From contig DMTJ01000359.1 in NCBI GenBank assembly GCA_003477185.1, forward strand, positions 1-5,342: a DNA stretch of 5,342 bases, given 5' to 3'. The stretch comes from Lentisphaeria bacterium (GTDB lineage: Bacteria > Verrucomicrobiota > Lentisphaeria > JABSQK01 > UBA12247). Below, one piece after another: positions 897-5,342 of this stretch (positions are counted from its first letter, which is position 1; every line of letters starts with the position of its first letter). The notes under the pieces are model-generated. The model saw nothing but the letters and a program-made list of their open reading frames with translations. It was not told where the DNA came from and did no database searches. The position numbers and the translations under genes are program-made.

Positions 897-2615
897 ATGG
901 CTCGTGATCTTTTAGAGCTCCTGGAGCAGCAGGGCGAACTCGACCCTGCAGAAGTAGACCAGATTAAGAAGCGGCAGCGTCGCGGAAATGTCAGCGTGCC
1001 GCAGGCCCTCATTGGTCACGGAAAACTCTCGCAGTCCATTATTTACAAAGCGCTGGCGGATGCCAATAAGCTTCCGTTTGTCGAGCTGTCAAAGGGCGGT
1101 GTTACGGAGGAGGCGGTAAAAAAGGTGAGCGCAAAGGTCGCGTTTCACTACAAGATTATGCCCATTTCGATCGAAGGCGGCGTGCTTACTTTGGCGTTTA
1201 GCGAGCCGCCTGATGTGCGCCAGAGGGAGAACCTGAGGATGCTGCTGAGCATGCGGATCCGGCCAGCGATCGCAGCACCTAACGATATCTCGCACTCTGC
1301 CAAAAAGCACTATGGCCTAGGCGCGGATACGGTGCTGGCTATTCGCAGCGATCGCGCGACTTTCAGTCGGTTCGACGATGGCGGCTATGATCGCGATACT
1401 GCGCAGGACATCGAACTGGAAGAAGGCGATGCTTCGATCACCAGCCTGGTCAATCAGATTCTGGCTGAAGCTCTCGAGATGAAGGCGACAGATGTGCATA
1501 TCGAGCCCTTCGAAGATACCGTGCGACTGCGCTACCGGATCGACGGATTTCTGCGTGAAATCGCGCTGCCACCGGGGTTGCGGGAGCTGCATGCGTCGAT
1601 TATTTCGCGGATGAAAATCATGGCGGATCTTAACATCGCCGAGAAGCGCTTGCCTCACGACGGGCGAATTAAGCTGGTGATCGCCGAGAACGAGTTCGAC
1701 CTTCGTGTTTCGATCCTACCGACGCGCTTTGGCGAGACGCTCAACCTTCGTATCCTGAACCGTGACAACATCTTCTTCGACTTGGAGCGCCTTGGCCTGG
1801 AGAAGGAGCAATACCAGCTACTCCTGAAGCTGCTGGATCTACCCCATGGCATGATTCTGGTGACGGGCCCGACCGGCAGTGGGAAGACGACCACGCTGTA
1901 TGCGTCGCTCGCAAAGACGGATAAGGACACTCGCAAAGTGATCACGGTCGAAGATCCGGTGGAATACCAGTTGTATGGCATTAGTCAAATTCAGATCCAC
2001 GAGAGTATTGGGCTAACGTTTGCGAGCTGTCTGCGCTCCATCCTGCGGCATGACCCTGACATTGTGCTGGTGGGCGAGATGCGCGATAGCGAGACCGCCG
2101 AAATCGGGATCCGCGCGGCGCTGACGGGGCATTTGGTCCTTAGCACGCTGCATACAAATGACTCGGTGGGCGCGATTAATCGGTTGATCGACATGGGCGT
2201 CGAGCCGTTTCTGGTAGCATCCTCACTGTCCGCATCGTTGGCCCAGCGTCTGGTACGACGAATCTGCCCGTATTGTAAGGTCCCGCAGACGGACATCCCG
2301 GATGCAGTGGCGCTGGAGATGGGTGATGCGCTGGATTGTGACGCTGATGACGTACAGGCTTGGATCGGAGAAGGCTGCAATGAATGCACTGGCATTGGCT
2401 ACGTGGGCCGGGTCGCGATCTACGAGTTCTTCTTGATGGACGAGGATCTGCGTGACATGGTGAGCCGCCACGCGAATACCAATGAGCTACGATCTGCTGG
2501 CATTCGCAGTGGGATGCACACGCTGCGGGATGACGGCTGGCGAAAAGTTGCCAAGGGCGACACCAGTATTGAAGAAGTGCAGCGGATCACGACCGCTGCT
2601 CAGCTGCGCTACTGA
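897..2615 (+). CDS. gspE: Type II secretion / type IV pilus assembly ATPase (GspE/PilB family)
   Basis: This 572-residue cytoplasmic hexameric ATPase powers pseudopilus or pilus subunit assembly. An N-terminal GspE-N-like domain (about residues 1-140, with ALIGHGKLSQ and KLPFVEL) leads through an acidic linker (140-178) to the N2E domain (DVHIEP at 199-204). The ATPase core has all family motifs: Walker A GPTGSGKT at 324-331 (Lys330), Asp box EDPVE at 352-356, Walker B-like DPDIVLVGEMRD at 386-397 (Glu394), and the His box with H412 and LHTND (H419). A zinc-binding four-cysteine site, C457-x2-C460 and C494-x2-C497, is complete; this is usual in GspE and PilB and absent from PilT-type retraction ATPases. 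Length and motifs indicate an intact gene. The ATG at 897 has only a weak purine stretch (TAGG) upstream. GspE and PilB cannot be cleanly separated from the window; the symbol is a best guess on the secretion side. Confidence 0.95.
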   Translation: MARDLLELLEQQGELDPAEVDQIKKRQRRGNVSVPQALIGHGKLSQSIIYKALADANKLPFVELSKGGVTEEAVKKVSAKVAFHYKIMPISIEGGVLTLAFSEPPDVRQRENLRMLLSMRIRPAIAAPNDISHSAKKHYGLGADTVLAIRSDRATFSRFDDGGYDRDTAQDIELEEGDASITSLVNQILAEALEMKATDVHIEPFEDTVRLRYRIDGFLREIALPPGLRELHASIISRMKIMADLNIAEKRLPHDGRIKLVIAENEFDLRVSILPTRFGETLNLRILNRDNIFFDLERLGLEKEQYQLLLKLLDLPHGMILVTGPTGSGKTTTLYASLAKTDKDTRKVITVEDPVEYQLYGISQIQIHESIGLTFASCLRSILRHDPDIVLVGEMRDSETAEIGIRAALTGHLVLSTLHTNDSVGAINRLIDMGVEPFLVASSLSASLAQRLVRRICPYCKVPQTDIPDAVALEMGDALDCDADDVQAWIGEGCNECTGIGYVGRVAIYEFFLMDEDLRDMVSRHANTNELRSAGIRSGMHTLRDDGWRKVAKGDTSIEEVQRITTAAQLRY

Positions 2616-2619
2616 CACA

Positions 2620-2670
2620 AAAAAGCCGGTACCCAAGCCGCTCAGAGAGCGATTCAGATACCGGCTTTTT
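2620..2670. terminator. Bidirectional intrinsic terminator between convergent genes
   Basis: AAAAAGCCGGTA (2620-2631) is perfectly complementary to TACCGGCTTTTT (2659-2670). A second small stem, CGCTC-AGA-GAGCG (2639-2651), is nested inside the loop. The outer arms give a GC stem followed by a T-run on the + strand and, because of the A-run on the left, a T-run on the - strand too. The element starts 5 bases after the stop of the ATPase gene and ends 16 bases before the stop of the small exported protein gene on the other strand, so it can terminate both transcripts. Confidence 0.9.
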
Positions 2671-2686
2671 GAGCAGCGTGGTGCTG

Positions 2687-3046
2687 CTATCTGCAGGAAC
2701 TCACCCAGGTCCAGCATCCGGGACGAACGATTGTACGCACGGAGCAGCCGGTGTAGCTGCGACGGTAGCCGTAGACCGGAGCGGTCCACTGCCAGCGCCC
2801 GGCTGATGCCGAGTAGTAGCTGTAGCTGTGGCTCTGGCGTGGGGAGCTATAGCTGTAGCTGTGGCGGGGGGAGCTGTAGCTGTGTGACCGATGCGAACGA
2901 TGCCGATCGTAGCCAGACGAGTGATGGCTGTTTCCGCGATACGAGTCGTATCGCGAACGGCTGTCGCAGGATCGGTCTCCGGCGTGAGCAGCGGCGGTGG
3001 ACAGAATCAGGGCGAAAAGCAGGACGAGTTGGGTGGAAACCTTCAT
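2687..3046 (-). CDS. Small exported Ser/Tyr/His/Arg-rich protein of unknown function
   Basis: The 119-residue product starts at ATG 3046 with a textbook signal peptide: MK, then a hydrophobic core VLLFALIL and a probable cleavage site AHA|G after residue 22. A longer in-frame start at 3100 would add 18 polar residues before the signal peptide and is disfavoured. The mature protein has a tract of Ser, Tyr, His and Arg with repeats such as HSYSSPR (about residues 48-80). A distinct C-terminal part follows (about 84-119) with WQWTAPVYGYRRSYTGC, an RPGCWTW motif and a final SSCR. The mature part has four cysteines (C27, C101, C111, C118), so disulphides in the periplasm or outside the cell are plausible. 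The basic, Tyr/Ser-rich middle could bind polyanions or the cell surface, but this is speculation. Signal peptide, clean stop and a shared terminator support a real gene. No family is recognised. Confidence 0.75.
   Translation of the reverse strand: MKVSTQLVLLFALILSTAAAHAGDRSCDSRSRYDSYRGNSHHSSGYDRHRSHRSHSYSSPRHSYSYSSPRQSHSYSYYSASAGRWQWTAPVYGYRRSYTGCSVRTIVRPGCWTWVSSCR
2818..2884. repeat. Three in-frame copies of AGCTGTAGCTGTG inside the small exported protein gene
   Basis: AGCTGTAGCTGTG occurs at 2818-2830, 2851-2863 and 2872-2884, offset by 33 and 21 bases. Both offsets are multiples of three, so the repeats stay in frame and encode the alternating His-Ser-Tyr-Ser tract read on the - strand. 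The GGGGAGCT segments between copies also repeat and encode Ser-Ser-Pro-Arg. Such a tract can expand or contract by slippage without breaking the gene. Confidence 0.85.
2935..2955. repeat. Perfect 10-bp inverted repeat with one-base centre
   Basis: CGCGATACGA, then G, then TCGTATCGCG form a near-seamless palindrome centred on 2945. It lies inside the small exported protein gene, where it encodes about residues 31-37 (SRYDSYR), itself a nearly mirror-symmetric peptide. It could be a chance consequence of Arg/Ser/Tyr codons or a protein-binding site or RNA hairpin within the coding region. Confidence 0.8.
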
Positions 3047-3051
3047 GGCGG

Positions 3052-3079
3052 ATTCTCGGTTGTTGTGGGTGCGTGTCAA
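3052..3079 (-). promoter_or_regulatory. Possible sigma-70-type promoter of the small exported protein gene
   Basis: On the - strand a perfect TTGACA (3079-3074) is followed after 16 bases by GAGAAT (3057-3052), a 4-of-6 match to the -10 consensus. Only five bases separate this -10 box from the ATG at 3046, so a transcript from it would begin at or next to the start codon and be leaderless or nearly so. No good Shine-Dalgarno sequence precedes the ATG, which fits. The -35 match is good, the -10 match weak. Confidence 0.35.
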
Positions 3080-3186
3080 CACCCTCCGAAGGCCCGTCAT
3101 CGCACTTTATTCAACGTTTTTGGCGCTTTGCTCCCTTCGCTGCGCTCGGGCTCTGCCTGCGGCGGTGCGAACTTCGCAAATTTCGG

Positions 3187-4023
3187 TCAGAAATCGAGAC
3201 GCAGCCCGACGCGGGCCGTGCGGCCGGGAACTGTGTAGCCATTTACTTCCCGATAGTCGACATCGCCGATGTTCTCGACGCGGCCAAAGAGGGACAGATT
3301 TTCGCGAATCGGCAGTGAGCCGGCGAGGTCCACGCGCGCGTACGAATCTAGGGTGGTGGTGTTTGCCCGGTCGTTGAACCGCGGCCCGACGTACTGCACG
3401 GTGGCGTTGAGGTGAGCACCACTTTCCCAGAGGTAGGTGGCGCCGAGTTTCGCACTACGTTTTGCCCAGCGAGCCAGCTTTTTGCCGGTCGAGCGAACGA
3501 CAAGATCCTGCCAGGTGGCATCGGCGTGAAGGGTCAGGGCCGTGCTGAGCCGAAGCTCCGTGGCTAGCTCAATACCTTGCAGGCGAGCCTCCGGAATATT
3601 CTCGGGGGCCCAAAATGAGAATGGATCAGTGGGGTCGACTGGGCGCCATTCGATAAAGTCCTCAACTTCAGAATGTAAGTACGTGGCACTTACCTCGAGC
3701 TCGTCCCTCAAGAGATTCTGGCTGACGCCTGCATCCCAGCCGTGGTGCTTTCTGGTCTACGATTCGGGTTGCCGCCGAATGGTTGGTAGAGGTCGTTGAA
3801 GTTGGGTGCTTTGAAGCCGGTGCCTATTGCACCACGAAAGGTAGTGGCGGCTGCGTCGCAGGTGCGGGTGCCGGCAAGCCGCTAGGTTGTGATGCCCGCG
3901 TGGTGCGAGCCCCAATGGGATTGGGCAAAGATTGCGCGGCGATCGCAATGAGGATGAATCGTGGATTCGTAGCTTCGCGCCTATGAGGATAGACCACGCT
4001 TCTGAGCCCAGCTGATGCTCGGC
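3187..4023 (-). pseudogene. btuB: Decayed BtuB-like TonB-dependent outer-membrane receptor (3' half only)
   Basis: From 3720 down to the stop at 3187-3189 the - strand encodes an intact C-terminal barrel end of a TonB-dependent receptor: GWDAGVSQNLL, FIEW, ARLQGIELATEL, LFGRVENIGDVDYREVNGY, TVPGRTARVGLRLDF, ending in the terminal Phe used for outer-membrane insertion. Upstream, homology continues in another frame with FRGAIGTGFKAPNFNDLY, QPFGGNPN and RPESTT, joined to the last part only if one base is restored near 3738-3745. That upstream frame has an in-frame TAG at 3882-3884, between HAGITT and RLAGT. A second frame change near 3950 leads to EAWSILIGAKLRIHD, and a TGA at 4024-4026 closes the earliest recognisable part. 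About 280 of the roughly 600 residues usual for BtuB remain; signal peptide, TonB box, plug and first strands are absent. A cobalamin riboswitch upstream supports a vitamin B12 receptor. Single-base lesions could be sequencing errors, but the missing 5' half cannot. Confidence 0.8.
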
Positions 4024-4074
4024 TCACGTCGAGATAGCTTTTAGGGCTAAGCAACTCAGGCGCGAAGTGGATTG

Positions 4075-4190
4075 TATGTCAAGGTTTTTGACTCACGAGC
4101 TTTTGCTTGTTTACAGTGGTGCGACCGCTCCGAATTCTCACCGGATTCCGTTGACGTGCAGATGATCCCCCGCGGTGTCGGAGTCTTGCG
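4075..4190 (-). ncRNA. Cobalamin (B12) riboswitch, possibly degenerate
   Basis: Reading the - strand, the conserved cobalamin-riboswitch core is visible: GTCAACGGAATCCGGTG (about 4156-4140), GAATTCGGAGCGG, then CACTGTAA (4118-4111), and after a short variable stem the B12-box-like GAGTCAAAAACCTTGACA (4094-4077). The order and spacing match the leader of E. coli btuB (GGGAATCCAGTG, GAATCTGGAGC, GGTAA, B12 box), and CACTGTAA is the common form in other bacteria. Deviations are ACGGAA for the usual GGGAA, TCGCAC where CCCGC is common, and a B12 box ending TTGACA instead of TGCC; I also cannot find a clear 5' partner for the ACC arm. These may reflect decay. In intact loci cobalamin binding represses expression of the downstream transporter. 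Here only about 50 bases separate it from the receptor remnant, and no clear expression platform or start codon is left. A TAGAAT box at 4204-4199 could be the -10 of its promoter. Confidence 0.75.
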
Positions 4191-4288
4191 CAAGGTAGAT
4201 TCTAGTGTGCCAAGTCACAAATATGTGGGATACGAGTAAGAGCCAGTCGGACTTAGTTGAATTTGCTGAAAGTGGCGCAACGGAAGGA

Positions 4289-5342
4289 TTATTGGTTGAT
4301 TTTAATCCTCAACCTATCTGCTTCTTTCAGATCTCCGCCGAGGCGAATAAACTGCTGGAGGGAGTTGTTTGCCGATTCCAAGTCCCGGAGCTGCCAGTGG
4401 GCCTTTGCTTCCCAGTAGTAAGAGCGCGGATCTTCGCGTTGAACGCGGGCGCCCTCGCGGGCCCAATCAAGGCAAAGCTGATAGTCTCCGCCATCATAGG
4501 CCGCTTCCGCCTGAATGAGAAGTGCCCGGATGTAGTCGGAGTCCTGCTCAAGAATCAGCGCTGCAACCCGAGTGCGCAGGAGTTGATTCTCCATGACCAG
4601 CGGGAGAAGCAGTTTGAATGCGTGCGTGCGATCAGCCCCATCCTTTACTTGACGGGCCTGAAGAGACAGGATCTGCTCAGTCAGCCAGGAGATCGGTTGT
4701 GTGGCTCCGGGTGATTCAATAGGCTTCCACATGCTATATTTTGTGGCTATTTCTAGCCCTCGCTGCGGATTGCCTGCCAAGGCGTGGGCTTCGGTCGCGA
4801 TTAGCATCGCCGGTCGATAGCTGGGGTGTGATTCAAGTACCTGATCAATTGAGCGAACGGCGCGGGGAAAGTCTTCGACAATCATGGCCTGATCGGCGTC
4901 GGCCATGAGTTGCTGTGTCTTCCAGCCGGAATGACCGGCCACTCCCCCGACTACGAGGGCCATGCCAAGGGCGGCCACGATAAGGACGGAGAGCACGAGC
5001 TGAAATACCCCCAGGGCGAGGCGGAATGTTCCTCGGCTATTGTCGGTATGTTGGTGTCTGAGGTGCTGGAAAACGTGCAGGGGGAGGTGGCCCCAGCGGG
5101 CGACGGGAAGAATGACTAGGTACCAATACAGCTTGGTCTCGAGTAGGAGCATTGCCACAAAGGCCAGGCCCGTGGCCCCAGCGGCAATGAGAGACTGTGG
5201 CGCGGCGATGACAGCCGGAATGGCAAGCATGAGGAACACATAGGGGCCAGCCCCGGAAATCATGCCGATGAAACACACGGCGGCTGCCAGAATCAGCCAG
5301 GTGGAAGCGCCGCCGAATAGTAGCGCCACGGCGACTATCAGG
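4289..5342 (-). CDS. Membrane protein with C-terminal TPR-like repeats (5' partial)
   Basis: The frame is open from the window edge to a TAA at 4289-4291, giving 350 visible codons. A GTG at 5329 is available, but the reading frame runs on upstream with hydrophobic LIVAVALL, so the true start is probably outside the window. Numbering from that GTG, hydrophobic stretches lie at about 1-26, 29-43, 45-63 and 66-76. A short basic/His-rich loop follows (HVFQHLRHQHTD, 85-96), then a last membrane segment at about 103-131. The rest (135-346) is soluble and helical. TPR-like units are seen at about 145-197 (DFPRAVRSIDQVLESHPS, then ATEAHALAGNPQRGLEIA) and 270-330 (AAYDGGDYQLCLDWAREGA, then YWEAKAHWQLRDLESA), ending in a basic RLRIKINQ. 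TPR domains usually scaffold protein complexes. I do not recognise the family, and no catalytic motif is visible. It ends about 100 bases upstream of the B12 riboswitch on the same strand. Confidence 0.85.
   Translation of the reverse strand, partial: LIVAVALLFGGASTWLILAAAVCFIGMISGAGPYVFLMLAIPAVIAAPQSLIAAGATGLAFVAMLLLETKLYWYLVILPVARWGHLPLHVFQHLRHQHTDNSRGTFRLALGVFQLVLSVLIVAALGMALVVGGVAGHSGWKTQQLMADADQAMIVEDFPRAVRSIDQVLESHPSYRPAMLIATEAHALAGNPQRGLEIATKYSMWKPIESPGATQPISWLTEQILSLQARQVKDGADRTHAFKLLLPLVMENQLLRTRVAALILEQDSDYIRALLIQAEAAYDGGDYQLCLDWAREGARVQREDPRSYYWEAKAHWQLRDLESANNSLQQFIRLGGDLKEADRLRIKINQ

What the first reader, a model, noticed from the sequence alone, without database searches (positions are those of the whole stretch)
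3187..4200. B12 riboswitch stranded in front of a btuB pseudogene whose 5' half is deleted
The - strand carries a recognisable cobalamin riboswitch core (about 4075-4190), then after only about 50 bases the middle of a BtuB-like barrel, so the signal peptide, TonB box, plug and first strands (about 300 residues, inferred roughly 1 kb) are missing. The remnant also has a one-base deletion near 3740, a TAG at 3882-3884 and a frame change near 3950. A retained regulatory RNA beside a dead transporter suggests recent loss of B12 uptake, or that the leader RNA now controls something else.
Basis: partly seen in the sequence, partly recalled or inferred. Interest (0 to 1): 0.7.

Follow-up and report, generated by a model that had tools for sequence, protein, structure and literature searches.

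The report
Dead B12-receptor gene behind decaying riboswitch
A broken fragment of a vitamin B12 receptor gene still lies behind a B12-sensing type of RNA leader that is likely decaying too, while the same genome carries another B12-receptor-like gene with transporter-like neighbours, so B12 uptake has likely not been lost and this is likely ordinary gene decay.

Summary
The observation mostly holds. Minus strand 4161-4074 matches a cobalamin-riboswitch model built from ten relatives (46.1 bits, E 3.8e-15), although both Rfam models score it below their cut-offs. Downstream lies roughly the C-terminal 40% of a BtuB-type receptor in two pieces of different frame (3968-3744, with a TAG; 3741-3190); plug and first strands are gone. 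In 21 of 36 relatives' leaders examined a BtuB-like frame follows (six of the 36 were in hand because they hold btuB), so this is a wrecked copy of a usual arrangement.

"Loss of B12 uptake" is not supported: contig C566 of the same MAG carries a second BtuB-like gene beside BtuF-, BtuD- and BtuC-like genes, a full-length 627-aa protein 99% identical to it exists, and the MAG encodes MetH.

"Leader reused" is not supported either: three leader columns invariant in 16 of 16 compact relatives are changed, one breaking a core pair kept in 10 of 10. Three L5-L13 pairs remain, so function is not excluded.

Best reading: a redundant, riboswitch-led btuB copy decaying with its leader. Low interest; a riboswitch before a dead transporter has a published precedent.

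The parts
4074..4161 (-). Cobalamin-riboswitch core (aptamer relic)
   Evidence: Model R1 from 10 relatives, 46.1 bits, E 3.8e-15; RF01482 33.5 bits, below gathering
4119..4124 (-). L5 loop, UCGCAC; the 16 compact relatives have CGCG (15) or CGUG (1) here
   Evidence: Column with G in 16 of 16 compact relatives is A here
4088..4093 (-). B12-box segment AGUCAA; its last A faces C4116, so the C-G pair of the CUG/CAG helix is not formed
   Evidence: C46-G76 pair 10 of 10 in aligned relatives; not paired in the window
4058..4067 (-). Putative L13 element (CUUCGCGCCU), expression-platform side of the kissing loop
   Evidence: CGCG-type motif after the B12 box in relatives; assigned by comparison
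3744..3968 (-). BtuB remnant piece B, with an in-frame stop and a net gap of 15-16 residues
   Evidence: tblastn with seven full-length relatives; BtuB HMM model 394-450, domain E 1.4e-13 for a search of three frames
3882..3884 (-). TAG inside piece B
3187..3741 (-). BtuB remnant piece A (HMM 450-629, barrel C-terminus, stop codon at 3187-3189), in another frame
   Evidence: HMM domain E 3.8e-44 for a search of three frames; PF00593 E 1.1e-20

Best explanation
This is the wreck of a second BtuB-type vitamin B12 receptor gene, missing its 5' half and interrupted by a stop codon and a frame change, and it lies behind a cobalamin-riboswitch leader that likely belonged to it and is likely losing its own function. 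In many relatives the same kind of leader sits directly before a btuB-like gene; when B12 is plentiful, such leaders are expected to shut the receptor off through the aptamer and its L5-L13 kissing loop (inferred from published riboswitches). Here the genome keeps another btuB-like gene with BtuF-, BtuD- and BtuC-like neighbours and a B12-dependent methionine synthase, so the copy in the window was probably redundant. Under relaxed selection the receptor lost about 1.0-1.1 kb from its 5' end (size inferred), gained a stop, an in-frame gap and a frame change, and the leader began to drift: a C-G pair of the core CUG/CAG helix is now C-A, and the L5-L13 complement is down from four bases to three. 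Shown: the homologies, the lesions, the second gene set, the leader differences. Inferred: redundancy as the cause, loss of switching, the order of events.
For: Leader: 46.1 bits, E 3.8e-15 with a model that excludes the window; the next hit in the MAG is 13.5 bits, E 0.65 (which scored 150 of 1361 first-look candidates). Usual arrangement: a BtuB-like frame follows 21 of 36 relatives' leaders, or 15 of 30 without the six that were in hand because they hold btuB; in 14 relative loci with both, open receptor frames of 562-716 aa, first possible start codon after the Rfam match at 8-240 nt in 13 and 406 nt in one. Remnant: two frames, TAG, residues before 339-371 missing. Redundancy: C566 btuB-like 376 aa up to the contig end plus BtuF/BtuD/BtuC-like genes; full-length 627-aa homologue 99% identical; MetH 2114 bits against a cut-off of 1497. 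Relaxed constraint: remnant branch 1.01 against 0.48 for the sister pair in a tree of 73 rows. Leader drift: C46-G76 pair 10 of 10 in relatives, broken here; three columns invariant in 16 of 16 compact relatives changed; R1 score below 7 of 8 compact leaders not used in training. The 174-aa ORF cluster spans 18 contigs, longest 208,065 bases, the same length as the longest contig of the neighbouring GspE cluster, which speaks against a one-off assembly error.
Against: The window is a whole 5,342-base contig of an 84.6%-complete, 612-contig MAG; the junction between leader and remnant cannot be checked against another strain here. The B12-specific names on C566 (BtuF second-best hit, corrinoid ATPase and BtuC best hits) fall below their NCBIfam cut-offs and rest also on gene order. 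C566 is cut at its 5' end, so whether that gene keeps a riboswitch is unknown. The window leader deviates at 3 columns that are at least 90% conserved; two relatives deviate at 5 and 3 such columns, and 8 relatives, mostly with a large P6 insert that the model lacks, score below the window with R1. P5 pairing looks intact or stronger (by reading). Three of four L5-L13 pairs remain, and in the tested P. megaterium metE riboswitch three pairs define the functional kissing loop (PMC10653944, passages), so switching may persist. The sister placement of the remnant and C566 has only 84/78 support on a long branch. 15 of 36 leaders examined do not precede btuB within the stretch held, so the leader's original gene is inferred.
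Confidence: 0.84

Rival explanations
1. The genome has recently lost B12 uptake and the remnant marks that loss.
For: A dead btuB behind a riboswitch, and no other riboswitch of this kind was found in the MAG (150 of 1361 first-look candidates scored).
Against: BtuB-F-D-C-like genes on C566, a full-length 99% identical 627-aa BtuB-like protein, MetH present.
Confidence: 0.04
2. The leader RNA still works and now controls another gene, such as the small secreted protein at 2687-3046, or the 174-aa ORF as a new short gene.
For: The aptamer is recognisable at E 3.8e-15, three L5-L13 pairs remain, and the 174-aa frame is open and its cluster spans 18 contigs.
Against: Core pair broken; the downstream gene (start taken as the ATG at 3046) has its own promoter-like site at 3079-3052, 10 of 12 matches, and no promoter-like site was found on the minus strand before the leader within 2600-4400; the 174-aa ORF begins with TTG inside the barrel and lacks an N-terminal export region (by reading), and no other 96-304 aa homologue was found at E up to 1e-3 among 81 candidates.
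Confidence: 0.06
3. Assembly artefact: a chimeric contig joins a riboswitch to an unrelated btuB end, and the stop and frame change are sequence errors.
For: Short MAG contig; the junction is unchecked.
Against: Leader and btuB often belong together in relatives; the 174-aa ORF cluster spans 18 contigs up to 208 kb; several lesions cluster in one gene while the neighbouring GspE and TPR frames are open.
Confidence: 0.06

Closest known systems
Cobalamin (AdoCbl) riboswitch upstream of btuB, Rfam RF00174/RF01482
   Same: Core helices, L5, B12-box region and a putative L13 motif in order, before a BtuB-like sequence
   Different: Scores below both Rfam cut-offs; CUG/CAG helix broken; L5-L13 complement shortened; no intact gene downstream
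BtuB, TonB-dependent vitamin B12 receptor (TIGR01779)
   Same: C-terminal barrel, best NCBIfam hit TonB-B12
   Different: N-terminal 340-370 residues (signal peptide, TonB box, plug, first strands) absent; frame change and stop; 70.3 bits against a cut-off of 599.7
Bordetella pertussis BP3410: yybP-ykoY Mn riboswitch before a non-functional Mn exporter (PMC8546581; passages seen)
   Same: A riboswitch left in front of an inactivated transporter gene
   Different: There the riboswitch was shown to respond to Mn; here the leader also carries core changes and is untested

Membership tests
Cobalamin riboswitch (RF00174/RF01482) | Score over the curated gathering threshold | tested here: not met
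   33.5 < 50; 21.3 < 31.5
Cobalamin riboswitch (RF00174/RF01482) | Significant match to a lineage-specific structure model | tested here: met
   46.1 bits, E 3.8e-15, model built without the window
Cobalamin riboswitch (RF00174/RF01482) | Core CUG/CAG helix (covarying in relatives) | tested here: not met
   10 of 10 aligned relatives form C46-G76; window has C-A
Cobalamin riboswitch (RF00174/RF01482) | L5-L13 kissing-loop complement | tested here: inconclusive
   30 of 32 parsed relatives have a 4-nt complement of L5 downstream (4 of 36 not parsed; no chance control), the window none; 3 nt remain
Cobalamin riboswitch (RF00174/RF01482) | Binds B12 and changes expression | not testable with these tools
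   Needs RNA probing or a reporter
BtuB (TIGR01779) | C-terminal TonB-dependent-receptor barrel closest to BtuB | tested here: met
   PF00593 E 1.1e-20; TIGR01779 best of 9 NCBIfam hits. By PDB sequence search BtuB ranked third, after an iron receptor and CntO
BtuB (TIGR01779) | Full length with plug, over the curated cut-off | tested here: not met
   Homology starts at residue 339-371 of 610-638; 70.3 against 599.7 bits
Pseudogene | Disrupted reading frame against homologues | tested here: met
   TAG at 3882-3884, frame change at 3744/3741, net 15-16 residue gap, 5' truncation
Pseudogene | No purifying selection across strains | not tested
   No strain-level DNA reachable; only a long branch

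The most novel reading that the evidence does not exclude
Freed from its dead gene, the leader persists as a stand-alone B12-binding RNA: a short transcript with a rewired core (stronger P5, altered B12 box) that titrates or senses B12 and acts on the surviving btu genes in trans.
Probability: 0.03. Interest if true: 0.65.

Novelty: new member of a known kind. Interest (0 to 1): 0.2.

Why it matters
It is mainly a caution and a small case study. A riboswitch beside a dead transporter does not by itself mean that the pathway is lost: here a second gene set survives. Because receptor and leader show damage together, strains of this lineage could show in which order a gene and its regulatory RNA decay. 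For annotation, Rfam's cut-off probably passes over real B12 leaders in this class: 47 of 59 genomes (own included) match RF00174 at E up to 0.01 but only 28 of 59 pass its cut-off, and some of the weak ones stand before btuB-like genes.

Tried and rejected
Loss of B12 uptake: rejected. C607 as the missing 5' half of the surviving copy: the N-terminal receptor piece at C607:75-452 is only 34% identical to P0002, so it is another receptor; no riboswitch was found on C607. Another copy or mobile element in the leader region: the DNA search of 3900-4290 in the MAG found no second copy, only a 32-nt and a 20-nt match. Folded-structure argument for a new element: the fold of 4210-3960 is no better than shuffles (z -1.03). 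A 10-nt perfect inverted repeat (3973-3982 / 4058-4067) includes the L13 motif; I judged it chance (rough expectation about 0.2 in 631 bases, own estimate, no call). Synteny: in G001 the best GspE homologue (60%) is followed, in the about 2.2 kb left on that contig, by another gene and not by btuB; no same-family genome was among the 59 searched. The genome-contig scan kept 80 loci of 526 confirmed; by title none is Kiritimatiellota or Lentisphaerae, and the tool says that the window's own or very near records may be left out. Taxonomy was given by no call; named GspE hits among the 120 rows listed are one Kiritimatiellaeota and several Lentisphaerae-type names, so a PVC-group bacterium near these is an inference.

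Counting caveats: a leader counted as paired if any of its candidate boxes paired, so its result (36 of 36, G001:C84 being anchored wrongly there and re-read) is partly by construction; the count free of this is 10 of 10. In one search the box was likewise chosen by pairing where several fitted (16 compact relatives). The 36 leaders are the 30 loci returned plus six in loci fetched because they hold btuB, out of 61 rows, one of which is the window. In one search one locus (L029) also has possible start codons inside the Rfam match, which I skipped. In one search, P0057 (under 400 aa) was dropped and P0060 to P0120 were not used. Model R1 was trained on 10 leaders without the large P6 insert, so relatives with the insert score low for that reason. 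The HMM is of 15 receptors: 14 of relatives and the own C566 copy.

Full report
What the window is. It is the whole of contig C203 (5,342 bases) of an unnamed MAG of 3.95 Mb in 612 contigs, 84.6% complete. On the plus strand it carries a GspE/PilB-type ATPase (897-2615) with an ORF upstream; on the minus strand a TPR protein (4289-5341, open at the contig end), then the finding, then a small secreted-looking protein (2687-3046). Named hits of the GspE among the 120 rows listed are one Kiritimatiellaeota and several Lentisphaerae-type names, so the host is probably a PVC-group bacterium near these (inferred).

The riboswitch is real homology. Rfam gives one hit in the window, RF01482 at 4155-4078 (-), 33.5 bits, E 0.0021, under the gathering score of 50; RF00174 gives 21.3 bits, under 31.5. 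I built a model from ten compact leaders of relatives without the window. It finds 4161-4074 at 46.1 bits, E 3.8e-15, with filters off; in the MAG the next hit is 13.5 bits, E 0.65, with 150 of 1361 first-look candidates scored. RF00174 matches 47 of 59 genomes (own included) at E up to 0.01 and 28 of 59 over the cut-off.

The leader often heads btuB. Of 36 leaders of relatives examined, 21 are followed by a BtuB-like frame, 7 by a protein with a prepilin-type N-terminus, and 8 by neither, three of which look like MetE by their first residues (my reading). Six of the 36 were in hand because they hold btuB; without them it is 15 of 30. In 14 relative loci with both elements the receptor frame is open over 562-716 aa, and the first possible start codon after the Rfam match lies 8-240 nt on in 13 and 406 nt on in one. 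The window arrangement is therefore a damaged version of a usual one.

The receptor is broken. An HMM of 15 receptors (14 of relatives, one the own C566 copy) matches two frames of the minus strand: model 450-629 in one (E 3.8e-44) and 394-450 in another (E 1.4e-13), E-values being for three frames. tblastn with seven full-length relatives extends piece B to between 3923 and 3968 and shows homology beginning between residues 339 and 371 of 610-638. Within piece B there is a TAG at 3882-3884 and a net in-frame gap of 15-16 residues; between 3744 and 3741 the frame changes. From the aptamer end (4074) to the remnant (3968-3944) is about 105-130 nt. So about 1.0-1.1 kb of coding sequence is gone or beyond recognition.

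It is not the only copy. Contig C566 holds a BtuB-like gene of 376 aa open to the contig end, 39% identical to the remnant, followed on the same strand by a periplasmic binding protein, an ABC ATPase and a permease. NCBIfam's BtuF model is second-best for the first, a corrinoid ATPase model best for the second and BtuC best for the third; these B12-specific hits lie below curated cut-offs, and the binding protein passes only the general TroA-like cut-off, so the names are inferences from hit and order. A full-length protein (P0002, 627 aa, plug and barrel) is 99% identical to the C566 product. The MAG also encodes MetH over the cut-off (2114 against 1497 bits). B12 use and uptake therefore look retained.

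Relation of the copies. In a tree of 73 C-terminal receptor regions the remnant is sister to the C566/P0002 pair with weak support (84/78) and a long branch, 1.01 against 0.48 changes per column. That fits an older second copy under relaxed constraint; it does not prove a duplication in this lineage. No close intact orthologue was found: among the 120 proteins listed the nearest to the remnant, apart from its own cluster, is 44% identical (P0005), the search being limited to the 7,992 candidates sharing most words and to 207-658 aa. The remnant's 174-aa ORF forms one cluster, 5 member sequences on 18 contigs, longest 208,065 bases, equal to the longest contig of the neighbouring GspE cluster; this suggests that the truncated ORF is real in other assemblies.

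The leader is drifting too. In the alignment of ten relatives the pair C46-G76 is kept in 10 of 10 and its neighbour U47-A75 covaries (UA 7, CG 2, GC 1); the window has CUG facing CAA, so C4116 faces A4088. Three columns invariant in 16 of 16 compact relatives are changed: this one, the fourth L5 base (G to A) and one P4 base, which keeps a G-U pair. Of 32 relatives parsed (of 36), 30 have a four-base complement of L5 after a B12 box, and one (G006:C104) has changed both sides, CGUG with CACG; the window has none (no chance control), though CGC/GCG (three pairs) is left. With R1 the window scores below 7 of 8 compact leaders not used in training. Against over-reading: two relatives deviate at 5 and 3 columns that are at least 90% conserved, 8 relatives score below the window with R1, mostly for want of the P6 insert in the model, P5 pairing looks intact or stronger, and in a mutational study three L5-L13 pairs defined the functional kissing loop (PMC10653944, passages seen). 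I therefore call the leader 'likely losing function', not dead.

Is the leader reused? The next gene on the strand, with its start taken as the ATG at 3046, has a promoter-like site at 3079-3052 (10 of 12); the scan of 2600-4400 shows no promoter-like site on the minus strand before the leader and no terminator-like site on the minus strand. The 174-aa ORF starts with TTG inside the barrel and lacks an export region. Nothing in hand supports a new role, and nothing here measures expression.

Literature. A search for cobalamin riboswitch with btuB and pseudogene returned 7 papers; by title and start of abstract, which is all I saw of them, none is about a riboswitch before a dead btuB. Wider searches held 343 and 70 papers, of which I saw listings of 12 and 10. 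A search with Kiritimatiell, cobalamin and riboswitch returned none. A precedent of the kind is Bordetella pertussis BP3410, where a manganese riboswitch precedes a non-functional exporter (PMC8546581, passages). That makes this a new member of a known kind.

Verdict. A redundant btuB-type gene decaying with its leader; ordinary, with a small point of interest in the joint decay of gene and riboswitch.

Noticed in passing
G001:C84 (L180), G012:C1 (L069), G051:C3 (L064), G056:C43 (L065); also G030, G050, G052: Cobalamin-riboswitch leaders followed by frames with a prepilin-type start (FTLIELLVVIAIIAILAG...) in 7 of 36 leaders, four of them with the frame opening within about 140 nt (by motif; the G001 protein had no Pfam hit at E up to 1e-5). 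These genomes hold 12 to at least 150 prepilin-type matches each, so some are expected by chance; no held paper has both 'cobalamin riboswitch' and 'prepilin'.
   Followed up: partly
window 4237-4268 (-): A 32-nt stretch upstream of the leader is 88% identical to C577:2880-2911; its core AAGTCCGACNGNCTC occurs 23 times in the MAG with up to one mismatch against 10 for the reversed control: perhaps a dispersed REP-like repeat.
   Followed up: partly
window 2687-3046 (-): Small protein with a signal-peptide-like start and a Ser/Tyr/Arg/His-rich body with repeats (by reading); no Pfam hit up to E 1.
   Followed up: no
window 3973-3982 and 4058-4067: Perfect 10-nt inverted repeat, one arm being the L13 motif of the leader and the other lying next to the remnant's 5' end; may be chance.
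   Followed up: partly
L079 (G000:C607) 6428-6542: A near-perfect hairpin of about 38 pairs, matched on both strands by a miRNA model (MIR8670, below its cut-off): an unexplained long inverted repeat at the end of an ABC-permease-like ORF.
   Followed up: no
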